A DNA stretch of 64,000 nt, taken from positions 1 to 64,000 of the forward strand of contig NZ_AUGL01000011.1 of assembly GCF_000422645.1 (NCBI RefSeq). Reading direction: 5' to 3'. Under the pieces are notes generated by a model. The model had not been told where the DNA came from and did no database searches. It saw nothing but the letters and a program-made list of their open reading frames with translations. Source of the DNA: Ferrimonas futtsuensis DSM 18154. Its GTDB lineage: Bacteria > Pseudomonadota > Gammaproteobacteria > Enterobacterales > Shewanellaceae. Position numbers and translations under genes: made by a program. Positions within the stretch are counted from its first letter, which is position 1. Each line of letters begins with the position of its first letter. Shown here one piece after another: positions 12,771-23,164 of this stretch.

Positions 12771-13106
12771 ATGATCAAATGGGTATCTGCCACCGCGATG
12801 GTGTTGGCGTTGTTGGGGTACGCCCTGTTTCAGTTAGGTGCCGGCGGTCGGCTGGCGGCACAGCTGAATCATTACCACAACAGTGATGTGGTGCTCTACA
12901 GTGCCTCCTGGTGCAGTGCCTGTGCGGCCACCCGCCAGTTTCTGACCGACAACCGCATCCCTTTCGTGGAACTGGACATGGAGCAGGATCCTCAGGGGTC
13001 CCGGGAGTTTGCCCAGTTCGGTGGTCATGGCATCCCTCTGGTGCTGGTCAAGGGGCGGGCCATTCGTGGTCACCAGCCCCGGCTGCTGGTTCAGGCCCTT
13101 AACTAG
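12771..13106 (+). CDS. Membrane-anchored glutaredoxin-like protein
   Basis: A 111-aa protein with one N-terminal membrane segment or uncleaved signal (residues 4-24) and a glutaredoxin-fold domain. VVLYSASWCSACAATRQFL carries a CxxC active site (Cys48, Cys51), and HGIPLVLVKG supplies the cis-proline. By topology the thiol domain could face the periplasm, which would be unusual for a glutaredoxin. The order feoAB then a thiol protein may be incidental, since a terminator separates them. Its end overlaps the convergent regulator gene by 8 bases. Confidence 0.85.
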   Translation: MIKWVSATAMVLALLGYALFQLGAGGRLAAQLNHYHNSDVVLYSASWCSACAATRQFLTDNRIPFVELDMEQDPQGSREFAQFGGHGIPLVLVKGRAIRGHQPRLLVQALN

Positions 13107-14718
13107 CGCCGTCCCAGCCATACTCTTTCAGTTTTCGGTAGAGGGTGGCTTTACCAATACTGAGAATTTTCATCGCCTGGGCCTTGTTGCCTTTGCAGGC
13201 CCTCACCACCGACAGAATGTATTCCCGCTCCATCTCCTCCAGGCTCAGCGCGTGGGCGGCGATCCTCTGGGGCAGGCCCATGGGGGCGTTCAGGGAGGGT
13301 GGCAGGTCCTCGGTGGTGATCTCCCTGCCGTGGCACAGGGCGGTACAGTACTCCACCACATTCTGCATCTCACGGATATTGCCTGGCCATGAGTGGTTCT
13401 CCAGGATACGGGTCACCTTCTTGGAGAAGCCCCGTATGCTTCGCCCCATCTGTCGATTCTTGTTTTCCAAGATGGAGCGCGCCAGGGGCAGGATGTCCTC
13501 GTGGCGTTCCCTCAGGCTGGGGATCTTGAGCTCTACGACACAGAGGCGGTAGTAGAGGTCGGCACGAAAACGTCCTTCGGCCACCTCCTGCTCCAGATTC
13601 CTGTTGGTGGCGGCGATGATGCGCACATCCACTTTGCGGCTGTGATTTTCGCCGACCCGGCGTACCTCCTGCTCCTGCAGGGTGCGCAGCAGCTTGAGCT
13701 GCATGGCCGGGGAGATCTCACCAATTTCGTCGAGAAACAGGGTACCCAGGTGCGCCTCTTCGAACAGGCCGGCCCGGTCCCGATCGGCACCGGTGAAGGC
13801 ACCGCGCTTGTGGCCAAACAGCTCGCTTTCCAACAGGGTTTCGGTGAGGGCGCCACAGTTGATGGCGACAAAGGGCTTGGCGGAGCGGTTGGAGCGCTCG
13901 TGGATAAAGCGGGAGAGGCGCTCTTTGCCGACGCCGCTTTCACCGGAGACCACCACCGAAGAGTCCACCTTGGCCACCCGGGCGGCCAGCTGGATCAACC
14001 GGGTCATCTCCCGGTTCTGGGTAATGAAGCCCTCGACGGTCTGCGGCTGGTCATTCGGCTCCGTTTGCCTGGCCCTGAGGGCCCGTTGAGTCAGTTCCAG
14101 CCTCTTGGTGAGCTCCTTGAGCAGGGAGTCAGAGGAGGCCATGGAAAAGAAGGGTTTGTGCGGTTCCAACTCCTCGCCCCAATCCTCCTTGAATTTGCCG
14201 ATGACTCGGCAGTAAGGATCACCTTTGCCGGTGCACATATCCTCGATGAAGTAGACCTCACGGTTGTGTTTCCAGGATTCAAACCCGCTGGCAAAGCCGG
14301 TCAGGGTCCAGCATACGGGGTCGTCGGACTCGCCGATGCTCAGCTGGTGTTGCTCCGCTTCATAGGAGTTGTGCCAATGCACCTCCAACAAGGCGTTGTC
14401 CCCGCCACTTCGGGGTTTGAAGGCAAAGGTTTTGGTGATGCCAAACAGCATGTGCAGATTCGAACCGCTTTGAGGGTCCATGTAGGCTTCAGGAAACTCA
14501 TTGCTGAGAATTTGCCCCGTACGCCAACCGTGGGCGTAGCCAAAGCGGGTCAGGATGCAGCGGGCAACAAAGGTGCCAAATTGATCGATCAGTTCTTTTC
14601 TTAACAAGCCCAGGGCGACGGCATCAAATAACACCATTCTCTGGTCTTTAAATTTAATTAACCCTTCATCTGGAAGAAAATCTAGGAACTCTCTTGGGTT
14701 AATTTCACTACTTAGCAT
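13099..14718 (-). CDS. Sigma-54 activator with aromatic-sensing XylR_N/V4R domain
   Basis: A 539-aa bacterial enhancer-binding protein of the XylR/DmpR/MopR class. Domains: XylR_N (about 10-105), V4R (about 110-175), linker, AAA+ sigma-54 domain (about 232-460; Walker A GESGVGKE 259-266, GAFTGA loop 306-311) and a Fis-type HTH at the end. The zinc ligands of the MopR/PoxR sensor appear conserved with exact spacing: Cys136, Glu159, Cys162, Cys170; Trp115 and His89 may match phenol-contacting residues (recalled, not aligned). Start ATG 14718 has AGAAGGGG upstream. Divergent from the flavoprotein operon, which has a sigma-54 promoter, so that is its likely target. Confidence 0.93.
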   Translation of the reverse strand: MLSSEINPREFLDFLPDEGLIKFKDQRMVLFDAVALGLLRKELIDQFGTFVARCILTRFGYAHGWRTGQILSNEFPEAYMDPQSGSNLHMLFGITKTFAFKPRSGGDNALLEVHWHNSYEAEQHQLSIGESDDPVCWTLTGFASGFESWKHNREVYFIEDMCTGKGDPYCRVIGKFKEDWGEELEPHKPFFSMASSDSLLKELTKRLELTQRALRARQTEPNDQPQTVEGFITQNREMTRLIQLAARVAKVDSSVVVSGESGVGKERLSRFIHERSNRSAKPFVAINCGALTETLLESELFGHKRGAFTGADRDRAGLFEEAHLGTLFLDEIGEISPAMQLKLLRTLQEQEVRRVGENHSRKVDVRIIAATNRNLEQEVAEGRFRADLYYRLCVVELKIPSLRERHEDILPLARSILENKNRQMGRSIRGFSKKVTRILENHSWPGNIREMQNVVEYCTALCHGREITTEDLPPSLNAPMGLPQRIAAHALSLEEMEREYILSVVRACKGNKAQAMKILSIGKATLYRKLKEYGWDGAS

Positions 14719-14746
14719 AAGTACGCCCCTTCTTATTCCTGACAAA

Positions 14747-14765
14747 GGGTTTCAATTTGAAACCC
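14747..14765. promoter_or_regulatory. Perfect inverted repeat, probable activator enhancer (UAS)
   Basis: GGGTTTCAATTTGAAACCC is two perfect 8-bp arms around ATT. It lies about 109 bases upstream of the predicted sigma-54 start at about 14865, the normal distance for an enhancer-binding protein site, and just 29 bases from the activator's own start. Binding by the adjacent V4R activator is inferred. Confidence 0.7.
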
Positions 14766-14813
14766 TGGTTTCTTCCTGGAACCAACCTGGATCACATTGA
14801 ATCTGTTCGCGCT

Positions 14814-14836
14814 CATGTAAATCAGTGGCTTACATG
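14814..14836. repeat. Inverted repeat beside the sigma-54 promoter
   Basis: CATGTAA and TTACATG, 7-bp arms 9 bases apart, end two bases before the -24 element. It could be a second regulator site. The arm sequence differs from the GGGTTTCA repeat, so a different protein is implied. Confidence 0.45.
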
Positions 14837-14838
14837 TT

Positions 14839-14854
14839 TGGCACAAAGGCTGCA
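14839..14854 (+). promoter_or_regulatory. Sigma-54 promoter of the flavoprotein operon
   Basis: TGGCACAAAGGCTGCA has the invariant GG and GC pairs exactly 10 bases apart and a full TGGCAC -24 element. The start would be near 14865, leaving a leader of about 160 bases before the GTG at 15024. The region 14719-15023 contains no gene. Confidence 0.8.
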
Positions 14855-14872
14855 ATCGTATTGTTGATGTTG

Positions 14873-14886
14873 GAAAGTGCACTTTC
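14873..14886. repeat. 14-bp perfect palindrome in the leader
   Basis: GAAAGTGCACTTTC is a perfect palindrome just downstream of the predicted start site. Its position would suit a repressor operator or an early RNA hairpin. No binding protein is known. Confidence 0.45.
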
Positions 14887-15023
14887 TGACCCACAGTTCT
14901 TTTTTGCGTCGGTCATAAGCTGATATTGGTCAGAGATATATGAATACCGTCAAAAAAGGATAACAAAAATAAAACTCTTCGGTGTGATGAGCATCGTTAT
15001 GCCGAGATGATGAGGATTACATT

Positions 15024-16562
15024 GTGAAAAATATGAAGAAACTCTCAGTTCTGGTGGCTGCGTCTCTTTTAAGCGCCGGCAGCTGGGCGGCAGACATTGT
15101 GAAAAACGTCGATGTCGTGGTGGTGGGGTCCGGTGCCAGTGGTCTGGCGGCCGCCGTGGAGGCCCAGGAGGCGGGCCTGAAGACCGTGTTGCTGGAAAAG
15201 ATGCCCAGCATCGGCGGTTCTGCCCTGTATATCGAGGGGACTTTCGCGGTGGAAACCGACCATCAGAAATCCATGTATGTGGGTCTGGACAGAGACTGGG
15301 CTTATAAGAACCACATGGAGTTCAACCATGGTTTCATCAATGGTCCGCTGATCCGTCGTTGGATCAACAACTCCGCCAACAGCATCGAGTGGATGGAAGA
15401 TCACGGCGTGACCTTCCACGATGTGCGTACCCTGTTTACCGATGGCTACCGCACCTGGCACATCTTCAAAGATGGTAAGGGCGTTGAGTTCGTCAATCAG
15501 ATGGCCAAGTCCTTCAAGGACGCGGGCGGCACCATCCTGACGGAAACTCCCGGAACCGAGATCATCTACAAAGGCGGCAAGGTTACCGGCATCATGGCCG
15601 AGGACGGTGAGGGCGAGACCTACCAGTTCAATACCAAGGGGGGCGTGGTGGTTGCCTCAGGTGGCTTCATCAACAACTCTGAAATGCTTGAGAAATATGG
15701 TATCCGCGCCGATTACGCCATCGTGGGGCCCAAGTCCGGTCGCGACGGCGACAGCCTGAAATGGTTTGACGAAGTGGGGGCTCGTTACGAGGGAATGAGC
15801 ACCCACCTGGCCATTGGTGCCTGGCTCTCCGGTAAAGATCCAAACACCCAGCTGAGCATGCCGGAACACACCACGGTCTACTCTCAGCTGGCCTCGCTGC
15901 TGCGCCAGCCCTATATGTGGGTGGCCAGCGATGGCAAGCGCTTCATCGACGAGTCCCAGGCGCCCCTGTGGTACAACACCGGCCCGGCGGTTGAGCGTGT
16001 CGGCGGCTCCTACTTTGCGGTGTTCGATGACAACCTCAAGGACTACATGATGAATGAGGGGATCGACATCTCCCACTCCGATTGGGTTCGTGTAGGCCAC
16101 AAGCTGGATCTGCTGGAGGAGGGGATCGAAGTCGGTCAGAAGGAGGGCTACCTCTATGTCTCCAACACCATCGAAGGTCTGGCCAAGAAGATGGGTGTAG
16201 ACCCCGTTGCCTTCAAGAAGACCGTCGAGGATAACAACCGTTATGCCCAGAATGGTCTGGATGAGGAGTTCCCCAAGGATCGCAAGTATGTACGTCCCAT
16301 CAGCAAGCCTCCCTACTTTGCGGTTAAGGGCGATAACGCCACCCTGATTACCCTGGGCGGCCCAACCACCAACACCGAGATGCAGGTGTTGCGTCAGAAA
16401 GACATGAAGCCTGTTGAAGGCCTCTACGTGGTGGGCTGTGAGGTGGGAGGTGTCTACGGTGACTCCTACAACCTGACCCTGGAAGGGATGGCATCCTCCT
16501 TCGCCATCAACTCTGGCCGTTTCGCTTCTCAGCACATCGCTCAGAAGCTCGGCAAGAAGTAA
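15024..16562 (+). CDS. Secreted FAD_binding_2 reductase subunit, non-fumarate type
   Basis: A 512-aa flavocytochrome-c-type flavoprotein for the periplasm: signal peptide to about residue 22 (GSWA/ADIV), FAD motif GSGASG (35-40), reductase body, and C-terminal FAD part (GLYVVGCEVGG). It has no heme domain of its own. Aligning by eye with Shewanella Fcc3, the proton-donor arginine (NE-TTRD) falls at Pro314 in IDESQAPLW, HHTMGG is LITLGG (441-446), HGANRLGG is YGDSYNLTLEG, and the HPT motif is missing. So fumarate, urocanate and methacrylate chemistry is not predicted; the acceptor is unknown. GTG 15024 has GAGGA 7 bases upstream; ATG 15033 is the alternative. Confidence 0.9.
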   Translation: MKNMKKLSVLVAASLLSAGSWAADIVKNVDVVVVGSGASGLAAAVEAQEAGLKTVLLEKMPSIGGSALYIEGTFAVETDHQKSMYVGLDRDWAYKNHMEFNHGFINGPLIRRWINNSANSIEWMEDHGVTFHDVRTLFTDGYRTWHIFKDGKGVEFVNQMAKSFKDAGGTILTETPGTEIIYKGGKVTGIMAEDGEGETYQFNTKGGVVVASGGFINNSEMLEKYGIRADYAIVGPKSGRDGDSLKWFDEVGARYEGMSTHLAIGAWLSGKDPNTQLSMPEHTTVYSQLASLLRQPYMWVASDGKRFIDESQAPLWYNTGPAVERVGGSYFAVFDDNLKDYMMNEGIDISHSDWVRVGHKLDLLEEGIEVGQKEGYLYVSNTIEGLAKKMGVDPVAFKKTVEDNNRYAQNGLDEEFPKDRKYVRPISKPPYFAVKGDNATLITLGGPTTNTEMQVLRQKDMKPVEGLYVVGCEVGGVYGDSYNLTLEGMASSFAINSGRFASQHIAQKLGKK

Positions 16563-16571
16563 TTCCGCTTC

Positions 16572-16594
16572 GGGCCCGGCCGCTGGCCGGGCCC
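16572..16594 (+). other. Strong intercistronic hairpin
   Basis: GGGCCCGGCC / GGCCGGGCCC, a perfect 10-bp GC stem with a 3-base loop, sits between the flavoprotein and the cytochrome. There is no proper T run (ATCTTTCC follows). It may stabilise the upstream message or lower read-through to set the subunit ratio. Confidence 0.6.
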
Positions 16595-16620
16595 ATCTTT
16601 CCTGGTTCAGGGGTTAAATA

Positions 16621-16959
16621 ATGAAAAAAATTGCACTGACTGTGCTGGCGGTGGCCGGACTGGTCTTCTCTCTCAATGGGGTGGCCAAGGAGCATCTGGG
16701 GGATCGCCATGGGGGCCTGGGCATCGAATGTGCCGACTGCCACCAGACCGACAAACCCACCAAGCGTGCCAAGAGCAAGACCTGTAAGGCTTGCCATGGC
16801 GACAAGGTGGCGTTGCCCATCTTCCAGGCAGAGGAGCGCAGCGTCGACTTCCACGAGTCTCCCCATGGCAAAGTACGTTGCACCAAGTGTCACCTGGCTC
16901 ACCAGGAGCCGGTGATGTACTGCAACGAGTGCCATGCATTCGACAAACAGCTTCCCTAG
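16621..16959 (+). CDS. Secreted tetraheme cytochrome c subunit
   Basis: A 112-aa periplasmic cytochrome with a cleavable signal (residues 1 to about 22) and four CxxCH heme sites: CADCH 37-41, CKACH 55-59, CTKCH 87-91, CNECH 101-105, plus spare histidines for bis-His ligation. The size and heme count match the N-terminal domain of Shewanella flavocytochrome c, here as a separate polypeptide. It likely passes electrons from the quinol-oxidising CymA/NrfH type of protein (not in this window) to the flavoprotein encoded 58 bases upstream. Confidence 0.93.
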   Translation: MKKIALTVLAVAGLVFSLNGVAKEHLGDRHGGLGIECADCHQTDKPTKRAKSKTCKACHGDKVALPIFQAEERSVDFHESPHGKVRCTKCHLAHQEPVMYCNECHAFDKQLP

Positions 16960-17045
16960 GAACACCTGCCCGGGTTGCGCTTTGACGGTCTCGGCAACGC
17001 CTCTGGAGGGTCACACGCAGCCCTTTGGGCTGGCGGAGTAAAGTC

Positions 17046-18266
17046 ATGGCGGGGCGCAACCTGTTTTCCACTCTCGTTGGCATCAACTTCCTGACCACTC
17101 TGGGTCTGGGCGTCACCGATGCCTTCTTTTCACTCTATCTCACCGACCTTGGGGCCAGGGGCGGGTTTCTGGCCCTGGCGCTGACCCTCTATGCCGGCTC
17201 CAAATGTCTGTTCAGCCCTATGGCGAGCTGGTGTCTGTCGCGTCTGGGGACCAGGCGCAGCCTGCTGCTCTGCCTGTGGGGACAGCTGCTGATCGCCCTG
17301 GGCTTCCTGGCTCTGGATCACCTCTACGCCATCGCATTGCTGCGTATCCTTCAGGGGGGATTGTCGGCCCTGTTCAGGCCATTGATGCTGGCCCTGGTCA
17401 GCGATCTCGCTGAGCCTCGTCGCCGGGGGCAAACGGTGGCACGCATTGACCTGGCGTTCTACTCTGCCCTGGCGTTGGGCCCTCTGCTGGGAGGGGCTTT
17501 GGGGGACCACTTTGGTTGCGCCGGAGTCTATTGCCTGCTGGCGTTGTCGGCGTCTTTTTCCCTGGGTCTGGCGATGACGCTGTCCGGCGAGGCCAGGCGG
17601 CCCGAGACGCCGAGGCCCTCTCAATGGCGCCTGTTGGGGATGGTGCGGCTGTGTCGCGACCCAGCCTTGCAGAGTCTGTTGATCTACATCTTCACCCGCA
17701 CTCTGGGCATTGCCCAGGTCGGCCTGTTCTGGCCCATGATGCTCAGGGATGAGATTGGACTCAGCCTCAGCCAAACCGGCATCGTGCTGGCGGCCAACAG
17801 CCTGATGACCTTGGTGCTGCTGCAAACGGGCGGGTGGCTCAGTGACCGATGCTGCCGTTACCTGATGATGGTGGGGTGCACTGCCGGTACGGCACTGGGG
17901 CTGCTGCTGATGGCCGTGGTGCAGGAGTATGCTCAGGCGCTGTTGCTGGGTGCCTGGCTGGGCGGGCTGACGGCTCTGGCCCAACCGGCGTGCACCTCGT
18001 TGCTGCTGCAACAGGGGGAGCGCTTCGAGCGGGGCGCGGCCTTAAGTGTGTTTCATCTGGTGCTCAACCTGGGGTTTATCTTTGGTCCCCTGCTTGGGGG
18101 GAGCGTGCTGGCAAGCTGTGGGCTCAGCGCTGTCTTCGTTGCGACCGGACTGCTTACCCTCACCGCCTCCCTGTTCCTGCTGGTTCGTTTTTCCTCTGCG
18201 TCGCCATCTGGGCGGGGAGAACACTGGGCCGCCGGGGCTGAACACCGGCGTCAACCTGGCCGGTGA
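17046..18266 (+). CDS. MFS transporter
   Basis: A 406-aa major facilitator with about 12 membrane spans and a loop of the DxxxRR type (SRLGTRRS) between helices 2 and 3. ATG 17046 is preferred (GGAG upstream) over a TTG at 17025. It follows the cytochrome by 86 bases with only a weak CAGCCC/GGGCTG hairpin between, so it may belong to the same sigma-54 transcript. An attractive but unproven role is moving the reductase substrate or product across the inner membrane. The last 25 residues are polar and look non-conserved. Substrate unknown. Confidence 0.85.
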   Translation: MAGRNLFSTLVGINFLTTLGLGVTDAFFSLYLTDLGARGGFLALALTLYAGSKCLFSPMASWCLSRLGTRRSLLLCLWGQLLIALGFLALDHLYAIALLRILQGGLSALFRPLMLALVSDLAEPRRRGQTVARIDLAFYSALALGPLLGGALGDHFGCAGVYCLLALSASFSLGLAMTLSGEARRPETPRPSQWRLLGMVRLCRDPALQSLLIYIFTRTLGIAQVGLFWPMMLRDEIGLSLSQTGIVLAANSLMTLVLLQTGGWLSDRCCRYLMMVGCTAGTALGLLLMAVVQEYAQALLLGAWLGGLTALAQPACTSLLLQQGERFERGAALSVFHLVLNLGFIFGPLLGGSVLASCGLSAVFVATGLLTLTASLFLLVRFSSASPSGRGEHWAAGAEHRRQPGR

Positions 18267-18377
18267 CTCTGGCTCTGTGGGTTGTATCTTGGGGCCGGTT
18301 GCCCCTGAGCAGGCGGTGGCAATCAGCACCGTGTTGCCTTGGGCATCGGTGAGCAGCATCTGAGACCAGGTTTTCAC
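18210..18377 (-). CDS. Possible small ORF overlapping the MFS gene end
   Basis: A GTG at 18377 has an excellent ribosome site (AAGGAG, 8 bases upstream) and starts MKTWSQMLLTDAQGNTVLI. The frame stays open to 18042, but beyond about residue 55 it lies opposite the transporter and becomes low-complexity and charged, so the true end is unclear and the end given is approximate. It follows the porin-like gene by 65 bases and could be co-transcribed with it. No family is recognised. Confidence 0.3.
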
Positions 18378-18442
18378 GGCAGGACTCCTTGAGTCGATGA
18401 CTGGAGGGGTGGTTGGGAGCCTGAGCTCCCAACCAGGTTGGG

Positions 18443-19360
18443 TCAGAAGGATTTGGTGAAGGTCAGTACCAGAGACTCCCCTTCGGCGGTGTTATTGCTG
18501 TCGAACTCGCTGTGGAAGCGCAAGTTGGCCTGCAGCAGCCAGGGCAGGTACATCACATTCAGCTCAGCACCCAGGCCAAAGGAGCGTTTGCGCTGGTCCG
18601 CAATGGAGCCCGCGCCATCCTTGCTGTCGTCGCTGATCTGCCAGCCTGCGGAGTAGCTGACGCCAGGGCGGATCAGCCAGTGATCATCCAACAGGATGTT
18701 TTTGCCCACGCCCCCCTCCAGGCAGAACTCCATCCCGGGTCTGATGCCGGTGTCATCCTGGTGTCCATGCCACAGGGTGCGGGACAGGGTGCTGAAGCTC
18801 CAACTGCGGTCATCGTCGAAGAAGTAGGTGCCACCGGCGGTGATCATTCCCGACCAGTAGCCATAACCCACGGATTCCGGTTTGTCGGCGCTGTAGTCGC
18901 CGGTGGGCGCAATGGCGGCGATGGCCAGAATGGCGTCGAAGCGCGGGTTGAACCAGAATAGCGCCAGCGGCTCGATGACGATGTCGCCCACTTCCAAGCC
19001 GGAGGCAGCATCGAAGGCACCGCCGATGGCGATCTCCTTGTCGATGACCGGCACGATCAGGTTATAGGCCCAATTGGCGCCGAAAATCTTGGTGTCGGTG
19101 ACGTTGACGAACCGGTGGGCCTGGGCAAACACCTCCAGGCTGAAGTCCATCTGCTGGGCGTCGCCGTTATCATCGGTGAGGGTGTCGGCGTCATACCAGG
19201 TGTTGTAGAGCCGGTAGTGCATCCCTGGTGGCGGTGGGGTTCCCGCTTCGACCCCTTCCCCCCCTGGGGAGTAGTGGGATCCTGAGGTGGCGGCCAGTGC
19301 GCTGCCAATCATCGCCATGGGCAATGCCAGGACAGCGGTACGGTGTAGGCATTTCATCAT
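18443..19360 (-). CDS. Outer-membrane protein, Phenol_MetA_deg type
   Basis: A 305-aa secreted beta-barrel: signal peptide ending GSALA, PPPPGMHYRLYNTWYDAD, APTGDYS near the middle, and a C-terminal phenylalanine (TFTKSF). This layout fits the Phenol_MetA_deg (transporter-like) family, often found beside aromatic degradation genes. ATG 19360 has GGAGAG upstream; an open frame runs 21 codons further but lacks a site. A -24/-12-like element lies about 130 bases upstream, so it may share the sigma-54 activator. It points toward the MFS gene. Function in uptake of an aromatic compound is inferred. Confidence 0.82.
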   Translation of the reverse strand: MMKCLHRTAVLALPMAMIGSALAATSGSHYSPGGEGVEAGTPPPPGMHYRLYNTWYDADTLTDDNGDAQQMDFSLEVFAQAHRFVNVTDTKIFGANWAYNLIVPVIDKEIAIGGAFDAASGLEVGDIVIEPLALFWFNPRFDAILAIAAIAPTGDYSADKPESVGYGYWSGMITAGGTYFFDDDRSWSFSTLSRTLWHGHQDDTGIRPGMEFCLEGGVGKNILLDDHWLIRPGVSYSAGWQISDDSKDGAGSIADQRKRSFGLGAELNVMYLPWLLQANLRFHSEFDSNNTAEGESLVLTFTKSF

Positions 19361-19487
19361 TTTTCTCTCCAGAGCTGTCTCGGGGACAGCCAACCCAATG
19401 TGTAAGGAATCGGGCCCTCTCATCGACTCGGCAATTCAGGGATACCCCCAAGAGGGGCTCGATGGCTGGGGGCCCGACACCGGAGAG

Positions 19488-19503
19488 TGCATGGTTTATG
19501 CCA
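19488..19503 (-). promoter_or_regulatory. Sigma-54-like promoter of the outer-membrane gene
   Basis: On the minus strand TGGCATAAACCATGCA keeps the invariant GG and GC 10 bases apart (consensus TGGCAC-N5-TTGCA; two mismatches). A start near 19478 leaves a leader of about 118 bases. A half-site like the upstream enhancer (GGGTCTCA at 19529-19536) lies behind it, but no full palindrome. The stretch 19361-19724 holds no gene I can support. Confidence 0.5.
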
Positions 19504-19724
19504 CTGATTTGACGGCTAAAAGCATCCTCAAGGGTCTCACAATGGGCGTTTTTTTGATGTCCGGATTCTCAGGATGAAACTTGAGTCTTGATTTGATTAC
19601 TGGGTGTTTATTCAGTGTACGCTTGCTGTCGTGGTGGTCGGCGCAACCCTGATATCCGCAGCTTGGGACACTTTCTGAGGCTCAGGTTCGTTTACATTGG
19701 TGGCATATTGAGTTGGGGGAATCT

Positions 19725-19922
19725 ATGAGCAGCGAATTCTTGTTTTCCTATGGTCTCGGCATCCTGCTGACGCTGTGGGTGGTTTGGGATCTGGTGAGCG
19801 GCAGTGCCTATCTGTGGCATCGCCATAAGCGGTCCGAAGAGCCCGGCCTCTACTGGCTGGCCATGCTGCTCTGGAGTGCCCTGGCACTGACCTGTTTTAC
19901 CTACCCCTACTGGAACCTTTAA
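19725..19922 (+). CDS. Small two-span membrane protein
   Basis: A 65-aa protein with two hydrophobic helices (about residues 5-27 and 43-60) joined by a basic loop (HRHKRSEEPG). GGGGGA precedes the ATG. No family is recognised. It is a single-gene unit closed by a strong terminator and lies between the porin-like gene (divergent) and the radical SAM gene. Confidence 0.65.
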   Translation: MSSEFLFSYGLGILLTLWVVWDLVSGSAYLWHRHKRSEEPGLYWLAMLLWSALALTCFTYPYWNL

Positions 19923-19928
19923 GGTGTC

Positions 19929-19977
19929 GCCCACCGCCTGAGTCTTGTCAGACAGAGGGCGGGTGGGCACTTTTTTT
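19929..19977 (+). terminator. Terminator after small membrane protein
   Basis: GCCCACC-GCC pairs with GGGC-GGGTGGGC (one bulge) and is followed by seven T. Confidence 0.8.
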
Positions 19978-20015
19978 GGGGCTCTATGGTCCTGGTTGTT
20001 TTTCATGGAGTGTTT

Positions 20016-21260
20016 ATGCGGATAGCGGCGATCAAAGTGTGTCAGGAGTCGGGATTCAAATCCTACAAGGCGTATCAGGCCTCTCCGCCTCAGGGGATCT
20101 TCTCCCTGGCAGCGGCCACTCCAAAGCCTCATCAGGTGACCATTCTGGATGAAACCATAGGGGACGCCTTGCCGGAGGAGCACCAGTTCGACCTGTTGGT
20201 GCTGTTCGCCAGTACCCCGGACATCAGCCGAGCTTATTCATTGGCGGACAGCCAGCGAGCTCTCGGAGTGCCTGTGGTGTTGGCCGGTTTGCATGTGTCC
20301 GCCCTGCCGGAGGAGGCGCAGTTGCACGCCGATGCGGTGATGGTCGGGGAGGCGGAACAGGCGTGGCCGCAGCTGCTGGCGGACCTGGCTCAGGGGGCCC
20401 TCAAGCCCAGAAATCAGGGGCAGGGTTCGCTGGATCTGGCTACCCTGAATCCCTGGCCTATGGATGCCCGGCTCAGCAAGCGCTACGGCTGTTGGGGCGT
20501 CCTGGTGGGCCGTGGCTGCCGACACAGCTGCAGCTACTGCACGGTGCGGCCCTTCTTTAAACGGGAAGCGTTTCGTCCTGTGGATCAGGTCGTGGCAGAG
20601 ATACGGGCCAGCGGCTGTCAGTCACTGGAGCTGCACTGCGACAACCTTTGTGCCGATCGGGATTACGCCCTGTCGCTGTTTCGTGCCCTGACGCCGCTGA
20701 ATATTCACTGGGTAGGCGAAGCCACCCTGGACTTCGTCGAAGATGAGGAGTTGCTGGCGGCGGCGGTGGCATCCGGGCTGTGGTATCTGCTGATTGGCCT
20801 GGAGACGGTTTCCCAGGAGGCCCTGAAGGGGGCTGGCAAGAATTTCATCAAGGTGGACAGGGCTAAAGCGCTGATCGAAAGGCTGCACAGCTACAACGTC
20901 ATTGTCGACAGCTGTCTGCTGTTCGGCTTCGATCAGCACGACGGCGGCATCTTCGAGCGCACGCTGGCCTTTGTGGACGAGATTAAGCTGGACGTTCCCC
21001 AGCCCAATATTCTGACCCCTTTTCCCGGCACCAAGCTCTACAACCAGCTCGACAGGCAGGGCCGTCTTTTGACCCGGGACTGGCAAAGATACGACTGCTC
21101 CCAGGGGGTGTTTCAGCCAGCCCAGATGAGCGTTCAGGAGCTGGAGCAGGGGGTGGCCTGGTTGAACGACGAGCTGTGGAGTGCCAAAAGGACGCTGGGC
21201 CGATTCGGCCGGGTGGTGTCCATGCAGGGGTTCTCTGTGGCCACCTCTCTGTTCCTCTGA
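20016..21260 (+). CDS. B12-binding-type radical SAM protein
   Basis: A 414-aa protein with an N-terminal cobalamin-binding-like Rossmann domain (residues 1-130) and a radical SAM domain holding the cluster motif GRGCRHSCSYC (Cys168, Cys172, Cys175). A GLETVSQEALKGAGK strand follows, typical of the B12-rSAM class. The canonical DxHxxG cobalamin histidine is not visible, so cobalamin may not be bound tightly. ATG 20016 has GGAG 5 bases upstream; an open frame from 19986 is less likely. The reaction is unknown. The ABC membrane gene starts 8 bases after its stop, so the two probably work together. Confidence 0.85.
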   Translation: MRIAAIKVCQESGFKSYKAYQASPPQGIFSLAAATPKPHQVTILDETIGDALPEEHQFDLLVLFASTPDISRAYSLADSQRALGVPVVLAGLHVSALPEEAQLHADAVMVGEAEQAWPQLLADLAQGALKPRNQGQGSLDLATLNPWPMDARLSKRYGCWGVLVGRGCRHSCSYCTVRPFFKREAFRPVDQVVAEIRASGCQSLELHCDNLCADRDYALSLFRALTPLNIHWVGEATLDFVEDEELLAAAVASGLWYLLIGLETVSQEALKGAGKNFIKVDRAKALIERLHSYNVIVDSCLLFGFDQHDGGIFERTLAFVDEIKLDVPQPNILTPFPGTKLYNQLDRQGRLLTRDWQRYDCSQGVFQPAQMSVQELEQGVAWLNDELWSAKRTLGRFGRVVSMQGFSVATSLFL

Positions 21261-21268
21261 ACCAAAAC

Positions 21269-22159
21269 ATGAGCCCTTTATCCTCACCCTGGCCGCAGCG
21301 GCTGAGTCTGATGGCCCTGTGGCAACGTTTTCCGGGAAAAATTGTCCTGACCGTCCTGTTGGTGATGGTGGAAAATGCCCTGCTGGTGATGATTCCCCTG
21401 GCCCTGGGTTGGGGCATTGATGGGGTGATGGCGGGCAGTGCCTCGGGGATCTGGCCTTTGGCCATCCTGCTGGTCAGCGTGACCCTGGCGGTGATGGTGC
21501 GACGGCTGTATGACACTCGAGCCTATGGTGCCATCCGGGTAGAGCTGGGCAGTGAAGTGGGCAGGCGACTGGCAAGCCAGCCCCTGTCGGTACGCAGCGC
21601 CCGGCTGGATATGAGCCGGGAGCTGGTGGACTTTCTGGAGAACGAGCTGCCGCCGCTGCTGACGGCCATCATTCAGTTGCTGGCTGCCCTGATTATCCTG
21701 TCGGGTTTTGCCTGGGCTCTTGGCGCGGCGGCCCTGCTCACGGCCTTGGTGATGCTGGGGGCCTACAGCCTGTTTCATCCGCGGTATCGGCGTCTGAACC
21801 ACCTGATTAACCGCCAGCAGGAGCGCCAGGTCAGGGTGTTGCAACAGTCATCCGGGGAGAGCCTGTTGCTTCATCTGGTCCGGTTGCGCCATCGAGAGAT
21901 TCAACTGTCCGATACCGATGCCCTGATGTATGGCCTGCTTTACCTGATGCAGTTTGCCTTCATCCTGGCAAACCTGATGCTGGCGGCAATCTGGGTGGTT
22001 CAACCCAGCGCCGGCACCCTCTTCGCCATCGTCACCTACAGCTGGGAGTTTGTGGAGGCGGCAGTGATGTTGCCGGTGGCGCTGCAGGGTGTCTCACGGC
22101 TGCAGTCCATCAGCGCCAGGCTGATGGCTGTGGGGTCTGGCGCTGAGAGCGCACACTGA
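21269..22159 (+). CDS. ABC exporter membrane domain without ATPase
   Basis: A 296-aa protein matching the six-helix membrane half of type-IV ABC exporters: first pair at about 20-70, a long cytoplasmic helix region with ARLDMSRELVDFLENELPP, and further spans to about 280. No Walker A, signature or Walker B motif follows and the gene simply ends, as in the stand-alone ABC six-transmembrane-domain proteins. The partner ATPase, if any, is elsewhere. ATG 21269 is 8 bases after the radical SAM stop. Confidence 0.82.
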   Translation: MSPLSSPWPQRLSLMALWQRFPGKIVLTVLLVMVENALLVMIPLALGWGIDGVMAGSASGIWPLAILLVSVTLAVMVRRLYDTRAYGAIRVELGSEVGRRLASQPLSVRSARLDMSRELVDFLENELPPLLTAIIQLLAALIILSGFAWALGAAALLTALVMLGAYSLFHPRYRRLNHLINRQQERQVRVLQQSSGESLLLHLVRLRHREIQLSDTDALMYGLLYLMQFAFILANLMLAAIWVVQPSAGTLFAIVTYSWEFVEAAVMLPVALQGVSRLQSISARLMAVGSGAESAH

Positions 22160-22222
22160 GATGGCCTTTTTCTCCGAGGCGGGTCATCATCACTGCATCT
22201 TCCAAGCTGAGAGAGTCTTAGG

Positions 22223-23164
22223 GTGTCACAGAAACCCTCGCTGCCGGCCCCGCACAATCTGGTGCCGGAACTGCAACTGGTGGAGCCATTGCCGCCGCAC
22301 TGGCGCAAGCGCTTCGAGAAAGCCATTGGCTTTATGATGGCCAATCTGGATGAGGTGCCCCCCCCAAGCTGGGATGAAGTGGCAGCCCATTGCGCCATCT
22401 CCCCTCACCATTTTCACCGCATCTTTCATTCGGTGTTCCACCAGACCCCGGGTCAGTACCTGAGCCGGATGCGGTTGCAGACCGCGGTGCACCTGCTGCT
22501 GGCCTCGGCAAAGCGCAGCGTCACCGAGATCGCTCACGCCACCGGCTACTCCTCCTCTCAGGCCCTGGCCAAGGCGCTCAAAAGAGAGCTGGGCACCAGT
22601 GCCAGGGCGATTCGGGCGCTGGGCAAGGACTCGGAGCTGCATGAGCTGGGTCAGTTGCTGGAGCAGCTGGGGCATCCCAAGCCAGAGGCCGGCAGTCTGG
22701 AGAGCCAGCTGGTGGCCGGGGTCGAGTGTGAGTTGCTGTCGCAGCCCCGGCGAACCCTCAAGGGACGACGGCTGACGGCGCCCAGCCTGGAGCAGCTGTG
22801 TGACCTTGGGGCGTCGGTGGGGGCGCAGCCACTGCTGATGGTGTCTGACGTGACCGCCCAGCTCACCGCCAACCTGTTCGATTATAAAATGGATGTCGGA
22901 GTGCGGGTGGACGAAGCGTCTACGCAGGGCGGAAGTGGGGTTATTCGGACTCTGCCCGCGGGTGATTATCTCTGTTGTCGGGTGGCCCTGGCGTCGGAGA
23001 CCGCCTACTTTGCGGTGTGGGACAAGTTGCTCCATGAAGTGGTGCGCCAGGGGCTGGATTTGCCGGAAGAGGGGATGGCGGTGGAGATTGTCGAGAACCC
23101 CGCTGAGATGACCCGGGATGTGTGGGTGATGACCCTGCAGCTGCAGGTAGACAGGGTGGAATAG
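22223..23164 (+). CDS. AraC-family regulator with GyrI-like sensor domain
   Basis: A 313-aa transcription factor with two AraC helix-turn-helix motifs at about residues 35-135 (WDEVAAHCAISPHHFHRIF; VTEIAHATGYSSSQALAKALK) and a GyrI-like/effector-binding domain from about 165 to the end (LPAGDYLCCRV). Unlike classical AraC, the DNA-binding domain is N-terminal, as in Rob and SoxS-GyrI fusions that bind small hydrophobic ligands. GTG start at 22223. It lies 63 bases after the ABC gene in the same direction and may control the radical SAM/ABC pair. Confidence 0.9.
   Translation: MSQKPSLPAPHNLVPELQLVEPLPPHWRKRFEKAIGFMMANLDEVPPPSWDEVAAHCAISPHHFHRIFHSVFHQTPGQYLSRMRLQTAVHLLLASAKRSVTEIAHATGYSSSQALAKALKRELGTSARAIRALGKDSELHELGQLLEQLGHPKPEAGSLESQLVAGVECELLSQPRRTLKGRRLTAPSLEQLCDLGASVGAQPLLMVSDVTAQLTANLFDYKMDVGVRVDEASTQGGSGVIRTLPAGDYLCCRVALASETAYFAVWDKLLHEVVRQGLDLPEEGMAVEIVENPAEMTRDVWVMTLQLQVDRVE

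What the first reader, a model, noticed from the sequence alone, without database searches (positions are those of the whole stretch)
13099..19503. Candidate aromatic-induced periplasmic respiratory system
A MopR/DmpR-type sigma-54 activator, a secreted flavoprotein, a secreted tetraheme cytochrome, an MFS transporter and a Phenol_MetA_deg-type outer-membrane protein lie side by side. The divergent promoter has a sigma-54 element and an enhancer-like palindrome. Known flavocytochrome systems (fumarate, urocanate, methacrylate reductases) have different active sites, and to my knowledge none is driven by a phenol-type sensor. I infer an anaerobic respiration that uses, or is triggered by, an aromatic compound.
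Basis: partly seen in the sequence, partly recalled or inferred. Interest (0 to 1): 0.85.

Follow-up and report, generated by a model that had tools for sequence, protein, structure and literature searches.

The report
Phenol-sensor-linked periplasmic respiratory flavoprotein operon
A marine bacterium carries a gene set that looks built to sense a phenol-like chemical and pass respiratory electrons to it or to a related compound; related bacteria that keep the set also carry dehalogenase genes, and its exact substrate is still unknown.

Summary
Window 13099-19357 carries a XylR_N/V4R sigma-54 activator (REG), divergent from a secreted FAD_binding_2 flavoprotein (FLAV), a tetraheme cytochrome (CYT), an MFS transporter and, on the other strand, a PF13557 outer-membrane protein (OMP). 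All five are kept in 4 Shewanella loci; REG-FLAV-CYT alone in two Ferrimonas. A sigma-54 site and two tandem palindromes are conserved in all seven promoters. REG keeps the phenol-hydroxyl His/Trp pair and zinc site of MopR, with an altered pocket. FLAV lacks 6 of 7 fumarate-reductase residues and forms its own clade in a vinylphenol-reductase-like (VprA) group. New here: all 5 XylR_N regulators found in 14 Ferrimonas genomes adjoin a flavoprotein plus tetraheme cytochrome, and reductive dehalogenases occur in 7 of 7 sampled carriers of FLAV but 2 of 31 non-carriers. One Ferrimonas locus joins a REG homologue, flavoprotein, cytochrome, OMP homologue and a dehalogenase. Best reading: a phenolic-gated, quinol-fed periplasmic reductase for an unsaturated or quinoid phenolic, possibly halogenated. 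Inducer, substrate and electron direction are inferred. A new variant of known flavocytochrome reductases.

The parts
13099..14718 (-). REG: XylR_N + V4R + sigma-54 AAA+ + Fis HTH activator, 539 aa; MopR H106/W134 equivalents are H89/W115; zinc-ligand equivalents C136, E159, C162, C170; GAFTGA loop intact
14748..14764 (.). UAS1, palindrome GGTTTCAATTTGAAACC
14767..14783 (.). UAS2, imperfect palindrome GGTTTCTTCCTGGAACC, 19 bp from UAS1 in register; same spacing in seven of seven loci
14838..14854 (+). sigma-54 -24/-12 element TTGGCACAAAGGCTGCA, reading towards FLAV
15024..16562 (+). FLAV: FAD_binding_2 flavoprotein, 512 aa, signal peptide by eye; Y482 at the position of Fcc3 R544
16572..16594 (+). 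G+C hairpin between FLAV and CYT (10 pairs), weak T tail; role unknown
16621..16959 (+). CYT: secreted tetraheme cytochrome c (4 CXXCH, Cytochrom_c3_2), 112 aa
17046..18266 (+). MFS transporter, subfamily unknown; 34-36% identical counterpart in the same slot in four Shewanella loci; not at the locus in two Ferrimonas
18443..19357 (-). OMP: PF13557 outer-membrane protein; 59-61% identical counterpart in line with the operon in four Shewanella loci

Best explanation
A ligand-gated anaerobic respiratory reductase. A small phenolic compound enters the cytoplasm and binds REG through its hydroxyl group (His89/Trp115). REG, bound at two tandem enhancer sites, then activates the sigma-54 promoter of FLAV-CYT(-MFS). 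FLAV and CYT are exported and form a two-subunit flavocytochrome. Quinol electrons pass through a CymA-like NapC/NirT protein to the four hemes of CYT, then to the FAD of FLAV, which reduces the C=C (or quinoid) bond of a phenolic compound without the carboxylate-binding residues of fumarate reductase. OMP lets the hydrophobic compound through the outer membrane and MFS may move substrate or product. Shown here: gene content, conservation, promoter layout, conserved sensor residues, loss of fumarate-reductase residues, presence of NapC/NirT genes, co-occurrence with reductive dehalogenases. Inferred: inducer, substrate, electron direction, the FLAV-CYT complex, the roles of OMP and MFS.
For: Five-gene set kept in 4 of 4 Shewanella loci found (identity to window: FLAV 78-79%, REG 61-62%, OMP 59-61%, CYT 44-47%, MFS 34-36%), REG-FLAV-CYT in 2 of 2 other Ferrimonas loci found. 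Tandem UAS and sigma-54 site in 7 of 7 promoters. REG sensor aligns to MopR, PoxR and DmpR/CapR chains at E 1e-22 to 1e-24; His/Trp dyad and four zinc ligands kept in 7 of 7, pocket lining changed in 7 of 7 (V112T, V114T, F132V, Y161F, S166E in MopR numbering). The dyad anchors the phenol hydroxyl and the far face sets the para-substituent choice (PMC10715001, passages); XylR has Tyr for the His (PMC7264223, passages). The dyad is not automatic in the genus: the G030 regulator has His/Met, the G301 one Cys/Phe. FLAV: 6 of 7 Fcc3 residues replaced, R544 by Tyr482; best NCBIfam model VprA 307 bits over nearly full length, flavo_cyto_c next at 190; Fcc3/Ifc/UrdA-like proteins split off at 100/100. 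Three NapC/NirT genes over the cut-off in the genome. A paralogue in the same genome (contig C14, 33% identity) also sits with a CYT homologue and a PF13557-type OMP homologue, as does one in G253.
Against: No functional data. FLAV is far below the VprA cut-off (307 of 600) and on a long branch of its own; relations inside the VprA-like group are unresolved in both trees and no true VprA was in them, so vinylphenol is a lead, not an assignment. The model's active-site loops have pLDDT under 50, so residue roles rest on sequence alignment, gappy near H365 and T377. OMP and MFS are missing at the locus in two Ferrimonas, and OMP is on the other strand in the window. FLAV occurs in 3 of 14 genomes of the genus.
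Confidence: 0.5

Rival explanations
1. The operon is an arm of organohalide respiration: its inducer is a halogenated phenol (for example a marine bromophenol), and FLAV-CYT acts on a halophenol-derived compound (quinone, quinone methide or unsaturated side chain), working with reductive dehalogenases encoded elsewhere.
For: RdhA (TIGR02486 over cut-off) in 7 of 7 sampled genomes with FLAV and 2 of 31 without: Ferrimonas 3 of 3 against 2 of 11, p=0.027; Shewanella 4 of 4 against 0 of 20, p=9e-5. In G030 one divergent locus holds a REG homologue (50% identity), a Tat flavoprotein, a tetraheme cytochrome, an OMP homologue (59%), RdhA and genes in the RdhB and RdhC places; by eye its promoter has TTCC/GGAA repeats 21 bp apart and TTGGCATGCGGTTTGCG. 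7 of 7 other Ferrimonas OMP homologues at 57% identity or more lie within about 2 kb of an RdhA.
Against: The window operon has no rdhA; the genome's one RdhA over the cut-off is on another contig beside a LysR-like and a FadL-like gene. My pattern scans did not pick up the G030 promoter; its likeness was judged by eye. The G030 flavoprotein is 25% identical to FLAV and branches outside the VprA-like group, on a very long branch. The co-occurrence counts are not corrected for shared ancestry.
Confidence: 0.2
2. FLAV works as a dehydrogenase: it oxidises a ring or side chain and hands electrons to CYT, as 3-ketosteroid and cyclohexanone dehydrogenases of the same fold oxidise theirs; the phenol sensed is its aromatised product or co-substrate.
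For: Same fold family (Foldseek hits 4c3x, 7p18, 8am3); Tyr stands in place of R544, which I recall as a feature of ketosteroid dehydrogenases.
Against: Partner is a Cytochrom_c3_2 tetraheme protein, the heme type I recall from Fcc3; VprA outscores the dehydrogenase models listed; no ring-cleavage or CoA-ligase gene was recognised by eye in the neighbouring ORFs (not searched with a tool).
Confidence: 0.12
3. The phenolic is only a cue (for example for plant or algal debris), and FLAV reduces an unrelated compound or removes toxic quinones without energy gain.
For: MFS matches efflux models best, though far under their cut-offs; sensors of this class can be induced by non-substrates (recalled).
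Against: Heme partner and NapC/NirT proteins point to quinol-fed respiration; a dedicated divergent regulator in all seven loci suggests matched ligand and substrate.
Confidence: 0.13
4. An ordinary fumarate, urocanate or methacrylate-type flavocytochrome with an unusual regulator.
For: Same overall fold, top structural match UrdA 6t86; tetraheme partner.
Against: H365, T377, E378, R402, H504 and R544 replaced in 7 of 7 members; the genome has a separate Fcc3-like gene and one that I take for UrdA-like by its motif. Methacrylate and acrylate reductases were not compared.
Confidence: 0.03

Closest known systems
Vinylphenol reductase VprA (NCBIfam NF053717; Lactiplantibacillus plantarum)
   Same: Best curated model of FLAV, nearly full-length match
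   Different: 307 bits against a 600 cut-off; FLAV has a signal peptide, a tetraheme partner and a sigma-54 activator; VprA is under LysR-type VprR (PMC10295242, passages)
Flavocytochrome c3 fumarate reductase (Fcc3) and urocanate reductase (UrdA)
   Same: FAD_binding_2 fold and tetraheme electron input
   Different: Heme protein is a separate gene; 6 of 7 Fcc3 residues replaced
Cgr1/Cgr2 cardiac glycoside reductase of Eggerthella lenta
   Same: Separate cytochrome-type and flavoprotein genes; Cgr2 also lacks most fumarate, urocanate and ketosteroid-dehydrogenase residues (PMC5953540, passages); CYT matches the Cgr1 model weakly
   Different: Regulator in its cluster is LuxR-type; Cgr2 was not compared with FLAV by sequence here
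MopR/DmpR/PoxR and EtpR/PheR phenol sensors
   Same: XylR_N-V4R-AAA+-HTH build, His/Trp dyad, zinc site
   Different: Those named control catabolic pathways (PMC10715001, passages); REG faces a respiratory-type flavocytochrome and has an altered pocket
Acrylate reductase ArdAB of Shewanella woodyi and methacrylate reductase systems
   Same: Two-gene periplasmic flavocytochromes (recalled, no call)
   Different: Not compared by sequence: no reference sequences at hand; literature searches returned nothing
Reductive dehalogenase RdhABC gene clusters
   Same: Often share the OMP family and, in one Ferrimonas, a REG homologue
   Different: The window operon has no such genes

Membership tests
VprA vinylphenol reductase (equivalog) | NF053717 score at or over 600 bits | tested here: not met
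   307.3 bits
VprA vinylphenol reductase (equivalog) | vinylphenol reduced to ethylphenol | not testable with these tools
   needs an enzyme assay
VprA-like broad group (this report's own term) | branches apart from Fcc3/Ifc/UrdA-like proteins, with Tyr at the Fcc3 R544 column | tested here: met
   Tyr in 13 of 13 rows of A2 and in L044-L048. The longer Y-x-D-x-Y motif holds in the 13 rows of A2 but not in L044, L045, L047 and L048
Fcc3 fumarate reductase | H365, T377, E378, R381, R402, H504, R544 (numbering and roles recalled) | tested here: not met
   only R381 kept
flavo_cyto_c subfamily TIGR01813 | score at or over 285.45 bits | tested here: not met
   190.3 bits
Aromatic-responsive XylR_N/V4R sigma-54 activators | XylR_N, V4R, Sigma54_activat and HTH_8 in order, GAFTGA loop | tested here: met
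   V4R 30.0 bits, 1 below its cut-off
Phenol-responsive subset (MopR/DmpR/PoxR) | His/Trp hydroxyl-anchoring dyad and Cys3Glu zinc site | tested here: met
   7 of 7
Phenol-responsive subset (MopR/DmpR/PoxR) | binds and responds to a phenol | not testable with these tools
   needs binding and reporter assays
Organohalide respiration operon | rdhA in the operon | tested here: not met
   none of the five proteins is one; the genome's one RdhA over the cut-off is on contig C27

The most novel reading that the evidence does not exclude
Marine Ferrimonas and Shewanella run a paired respiration of halogenated phenolics. A phenol-type sigma-54 sensor turns on a periplasmic flavocytochrome that reduces the unsaturated side chain or quinoid form, while reductive dehalogenases strip the halogens, both feeding from one quinol pool and sharing one outer-membrane channel family. 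The G030 locus would be the fused form; the window would be the split form.
Probability: 0.17. Interest if true: 0.85.

Novelty: new variant of a known kind. Interest (0 to 1): 0.62.

Why it matters
It gives a concrete, testable case of a phenol-type sensor facing a respiratory-type rather than a catabolic enzyme, with a ligand clue (phenolic hydroxyl, altered distal pocket) for a flavoprotein clade whose substrate cannot be read from its active site. The link to reductive dehalogenases says where to look: halogenated phenolics in marine sediment. Ferrimonas has been named in print as a candidate for new organohalide respirers (PMC5928378, passages).

Tried and rejected
Fumarate or urocanate reductase: disfavoured by active-site residues; acrylate and methacrylate reductases were not compared. 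Internal vinylphenol supply: phenolic acid decarboxylase PF05870 in 0 of 5 genomes, with 2 of 14 control genomes positive, so vinylphenol would have to come from outside. True VprA sequences for the tree: 249 genomes of the phylum of the Clostridium hit gave none over the cut-off, best 507 bits. Plasmid relatives: two at E<=1e-30, 28-29% identity. Class-wide sample: 1 of 369 genomes at E<=1e-60, the window's own. Order-wide sample: 6 of 295 at E<=1e-30, the window's own included; the other hits are at most 38% identical. The genome's RdhA under REG control: the stretch around it on C27 shows no match to my UAS pattern; single, not tandem, matches lie in two other dehalogenase loci, L094 and L096. 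Structural reading of the active site: model good overall (pLDDT 79.6) but under 50 at 474-476 and 479-485, so not used. Literature: searches returned no paper; two, one, eight, one; one search listed 25 of 196, seen as listing and abstract starts only.

Rows left out: the tree used 21 of the 26 flavoproteins gathered (left out: L007, L008, L013, L014, and L039, the same gene as L034); it warned of long branches (L046, L047, L021, L006). One search used 17 of the 26 plus two new rows. L032 was in no tree. In the co-occurrence count, carriers were G000, G299, G302 and the four Shewanella genomes of L030-L033; non-carriers were the other 11 Ferrimonas genomes and the 20 genomes of genus g2 (unnamed; I take g2 to be Shewanella). 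FLAV absence in those 20 rests, where 5 candidates per genome were scored; G253, one of them, has VprA-like flavoproteins but none of this clade. One search used E<=1e-40 and rang nowhere, controls included; the same model found all over-cut-off matches at E<=6e-45 or better except none weaker, so I read it as absence, but holds no positive control of its own. One search looked at 20 of the 39 over-cut-off dehalogenase matches.


Full report
What is there. REG is a XylR_N/V4R/AAA+/Fis-HTH activator; FLAV is a 512-residue FAD_binding_2 protein with a signal peptide (by eye); CYT is a 112-residue protein with four CXXCH motifs; then an MFS transporter on the same strand and a PF13557 outer-membrane protein on the other strand.

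Conservation. A genome-collection scan with FLAV found seven loci: F. kyonanensis and F. sediminum (90-91% identity), four Shewanella (78-79%) and a Clostridium MAG at 37% that is not of this clade. The four Shewanella loci hold REG divergent from FLAV-CYT-MFS-OMP in line (in one search I listed ORFs for three of the four). The two Ferrimonas hold REG, FLAV and CYT, followed directly by a glutathione-reductase-like gene that in the window lies several genes further on; MFS and OMP are not at the locus. In the genus, 3 of 14 genomes have FLAV. So REG-FLAV-CYT is the core; MFS and OMP are common partners.

Promoter. In the alignment of seven intergenic regions the most conserved 19-nt stretch starts at 14838, on the sigma-54 element (12 of 19 gap-free columns invariant, against 79 of 287 in the whole spacer). 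Two palindromes 19 bp apart in register stand about 70 bp upstream in all seven (9 of 18 columns invariant in each). A bare one-mismatch -24/-12 match is not rare in the window (6 found, 3.74 expected), so the weight rests on conservation and layout.

Sensor. The N-terminal domain matches solved MopR, PoxR and DmpR/CapR chains at E 1e-22 to 1e-24. In all seven orthologues the His and Trp that hold the phenol hydroxyl and the four zinc ligands are kept, while residues lining the pocket change (MopR V112, V114, F132, Y161, S166 become T, T, V, F, E). Published work ties the dyad to hydroxyl anchoring and the far face to the para substituent (PMC10715001, passages), and notes Tyr for the His in toluene/xylene-sensing XylR (PMC7264223, passages). 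Two other XylR_N regulators of the genus have lost part or all of the dyad (G030 His/Met, G301 Cys/Phe). My inference: REG senses a phenolic other than plain phenol.

Flavoprotein. Against the genome's own Fcc3-like protein, six of seven Fcc3 substrate-binding or proton-path residues are replaced in all seven orthologues; only R381 is kept, and R544 is Tyr482 (Fcc3 numbering and roles are recalled; the alignment is gappy near H365 and T377). The best curated model is VprA, 307 bits against a 600 cut-off; flavo_cyto_c gives 190 against 285. In the tree the Fcc3/Ifc/UrdA-like proteins split off with 100/100 support, and the window clade sits on a long branch of its own among VprA-like proteins, whose inner order is unresolved, with other rows, agrees. 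No true VprA could be put in. The predicted fold matches UrdA best, with poor confidence at the active-site loops.

The wider pattern. XylR_N regulators occur in 5 of 14 Ferrimonas genomes, one each, and all five adjoin a FAD_binding_2 flavoprotein and a tetraheme cytochrome. Three of the five are orthologues of REG; the other two are 44-50% identical to it and sit beside different flavoproteins. OMP homologues (29-31% identity) and CYT homologues also accompany VprA-like flavoproteins next to a PAS-kinase/response-regulator pair in the window's own genome (contig C14) and in G253, a genome of the same family (kinase and regulator read by eye).

Dehalogenase link. OMP homologues at 57% identity or more elsewhere in the genus number seven, and all seven lie within about 2 kb of a reductive dehalogenase over the TIGR02486 cut-off. 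Of 20 short dehalogenase loci examined, out of 39 over-cut-off matches, 7 showed the OMP in the flank held, two of them from Shewanella genomes. In G030 one locus holds a REG homologue divergent from a Tat flavoprotein, a tetraheme cytochrome, an OMP homologue, RdhA (257.6 bits, cut-off 160.35), a small membrane protein in the RdhB place (by eye) and an FMN_bind/Fer4_5 protein in the RdhC place. By eye its promoter has TTCC/GGAA repeats 21 bp apart and TTGGCATGCGGTTTGCG; my two pattern scans missed both. Across genomes, RdhA over the cut-off is found in 7 of 7 carriers of FLAV and 2 of 31 non-carriers (Fisher p 2.9e-6 overall, 0.027 in Ferrimonas, 9e-5 in Shewanella). These p values treat genomes as independent, which they are not, and (0 of 20) had no positive control of its own. 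Against a direct tie: the window genome's RdhA lies on another contig beside LysR-like and FadL-like genes, and the G030 flavoprotein is not of the FLAV clade. That Ferrimonas carries dehalogenase-cluster genes is in print (PMC5928378, passages).

Mechanism. The best-supported reading is a phenolic-gated, quinol-fed two-subunit periplasmic reductase; three NapC/NirT proteins that could feed it are in the genome. The acceptor is most simply the inducer or a close relative: an alkenyl or quinoid phenolic, possibly halogenated. No phenolic acid decarboxylase was found in 5 genomes. Electron direction and substrate remain inference.

Novelty. I saw no paper that joins these parts; searches were keyword searches in an open-access library and do not prove absence. 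I rate it a new variant of a known kind: known building blocks in a conserved arrangement, with a sensor-enzyme pairing that I have not met before and a separate clade of flavoprotein.

Noticed in passing
window 16572-16594: Ten-pair all-G+C hairpin between FLAV and CYT with a weak T tail; may set the flavoprotein to cytochrome ratio.
   Followed up: no
window 17046-23164: MFS, OMP, a radical-SAM-like gene, an ABC-like and an AraC-like gene (last three named by eye) lie between CYT and the glutathione-reductase-like gene; in F. sediminum and F. kyonanensis CYT is followed directly by the latter, so this stretch may have been gained or lost as a block.
   Followed up: partly
G305:C1:60622-60747: A fragment 88% identical to the first 42 residues of the window OMP in a Ferrimonas without FLAV; looks like a remnant.
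   Followed up: no
L058 3791-8906 (G301): Another XylR_N regulator beside a flavocytochrome-type protein (470.5 bits, over the TIGR01813 cut-off), a DcaP-like porin and a tetraheme cytochrome; its sensor has lost the His/Trp dyad.
   Followed up: partly
L018 5318-10279 (window genome, contig C14): Response regulator and PAS-kinase-like genes, a cytochrome, a VprA-like flavoprotein and an OMP homologue in a row: a second such system in the same genome.
   Followed up: partly
L057 4319-12694 (G030): Locus that joins a Tat flavoprotein, tetraheme cytochrome, OMP homologue, RdhA and RdhB/RdhC-place genes beside a divergent XylR_N regulator.
   Followed up: partly
L095 7556-13587 (window genome, contig C27): Reductive dehalogenase cluster with LysR-like and (by eye) FadL-like neighbours; RdhA plus a LysR-like gene also in six of the seven other stretches fetched with it (L096-L101; not L102).
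   Followed up: partly
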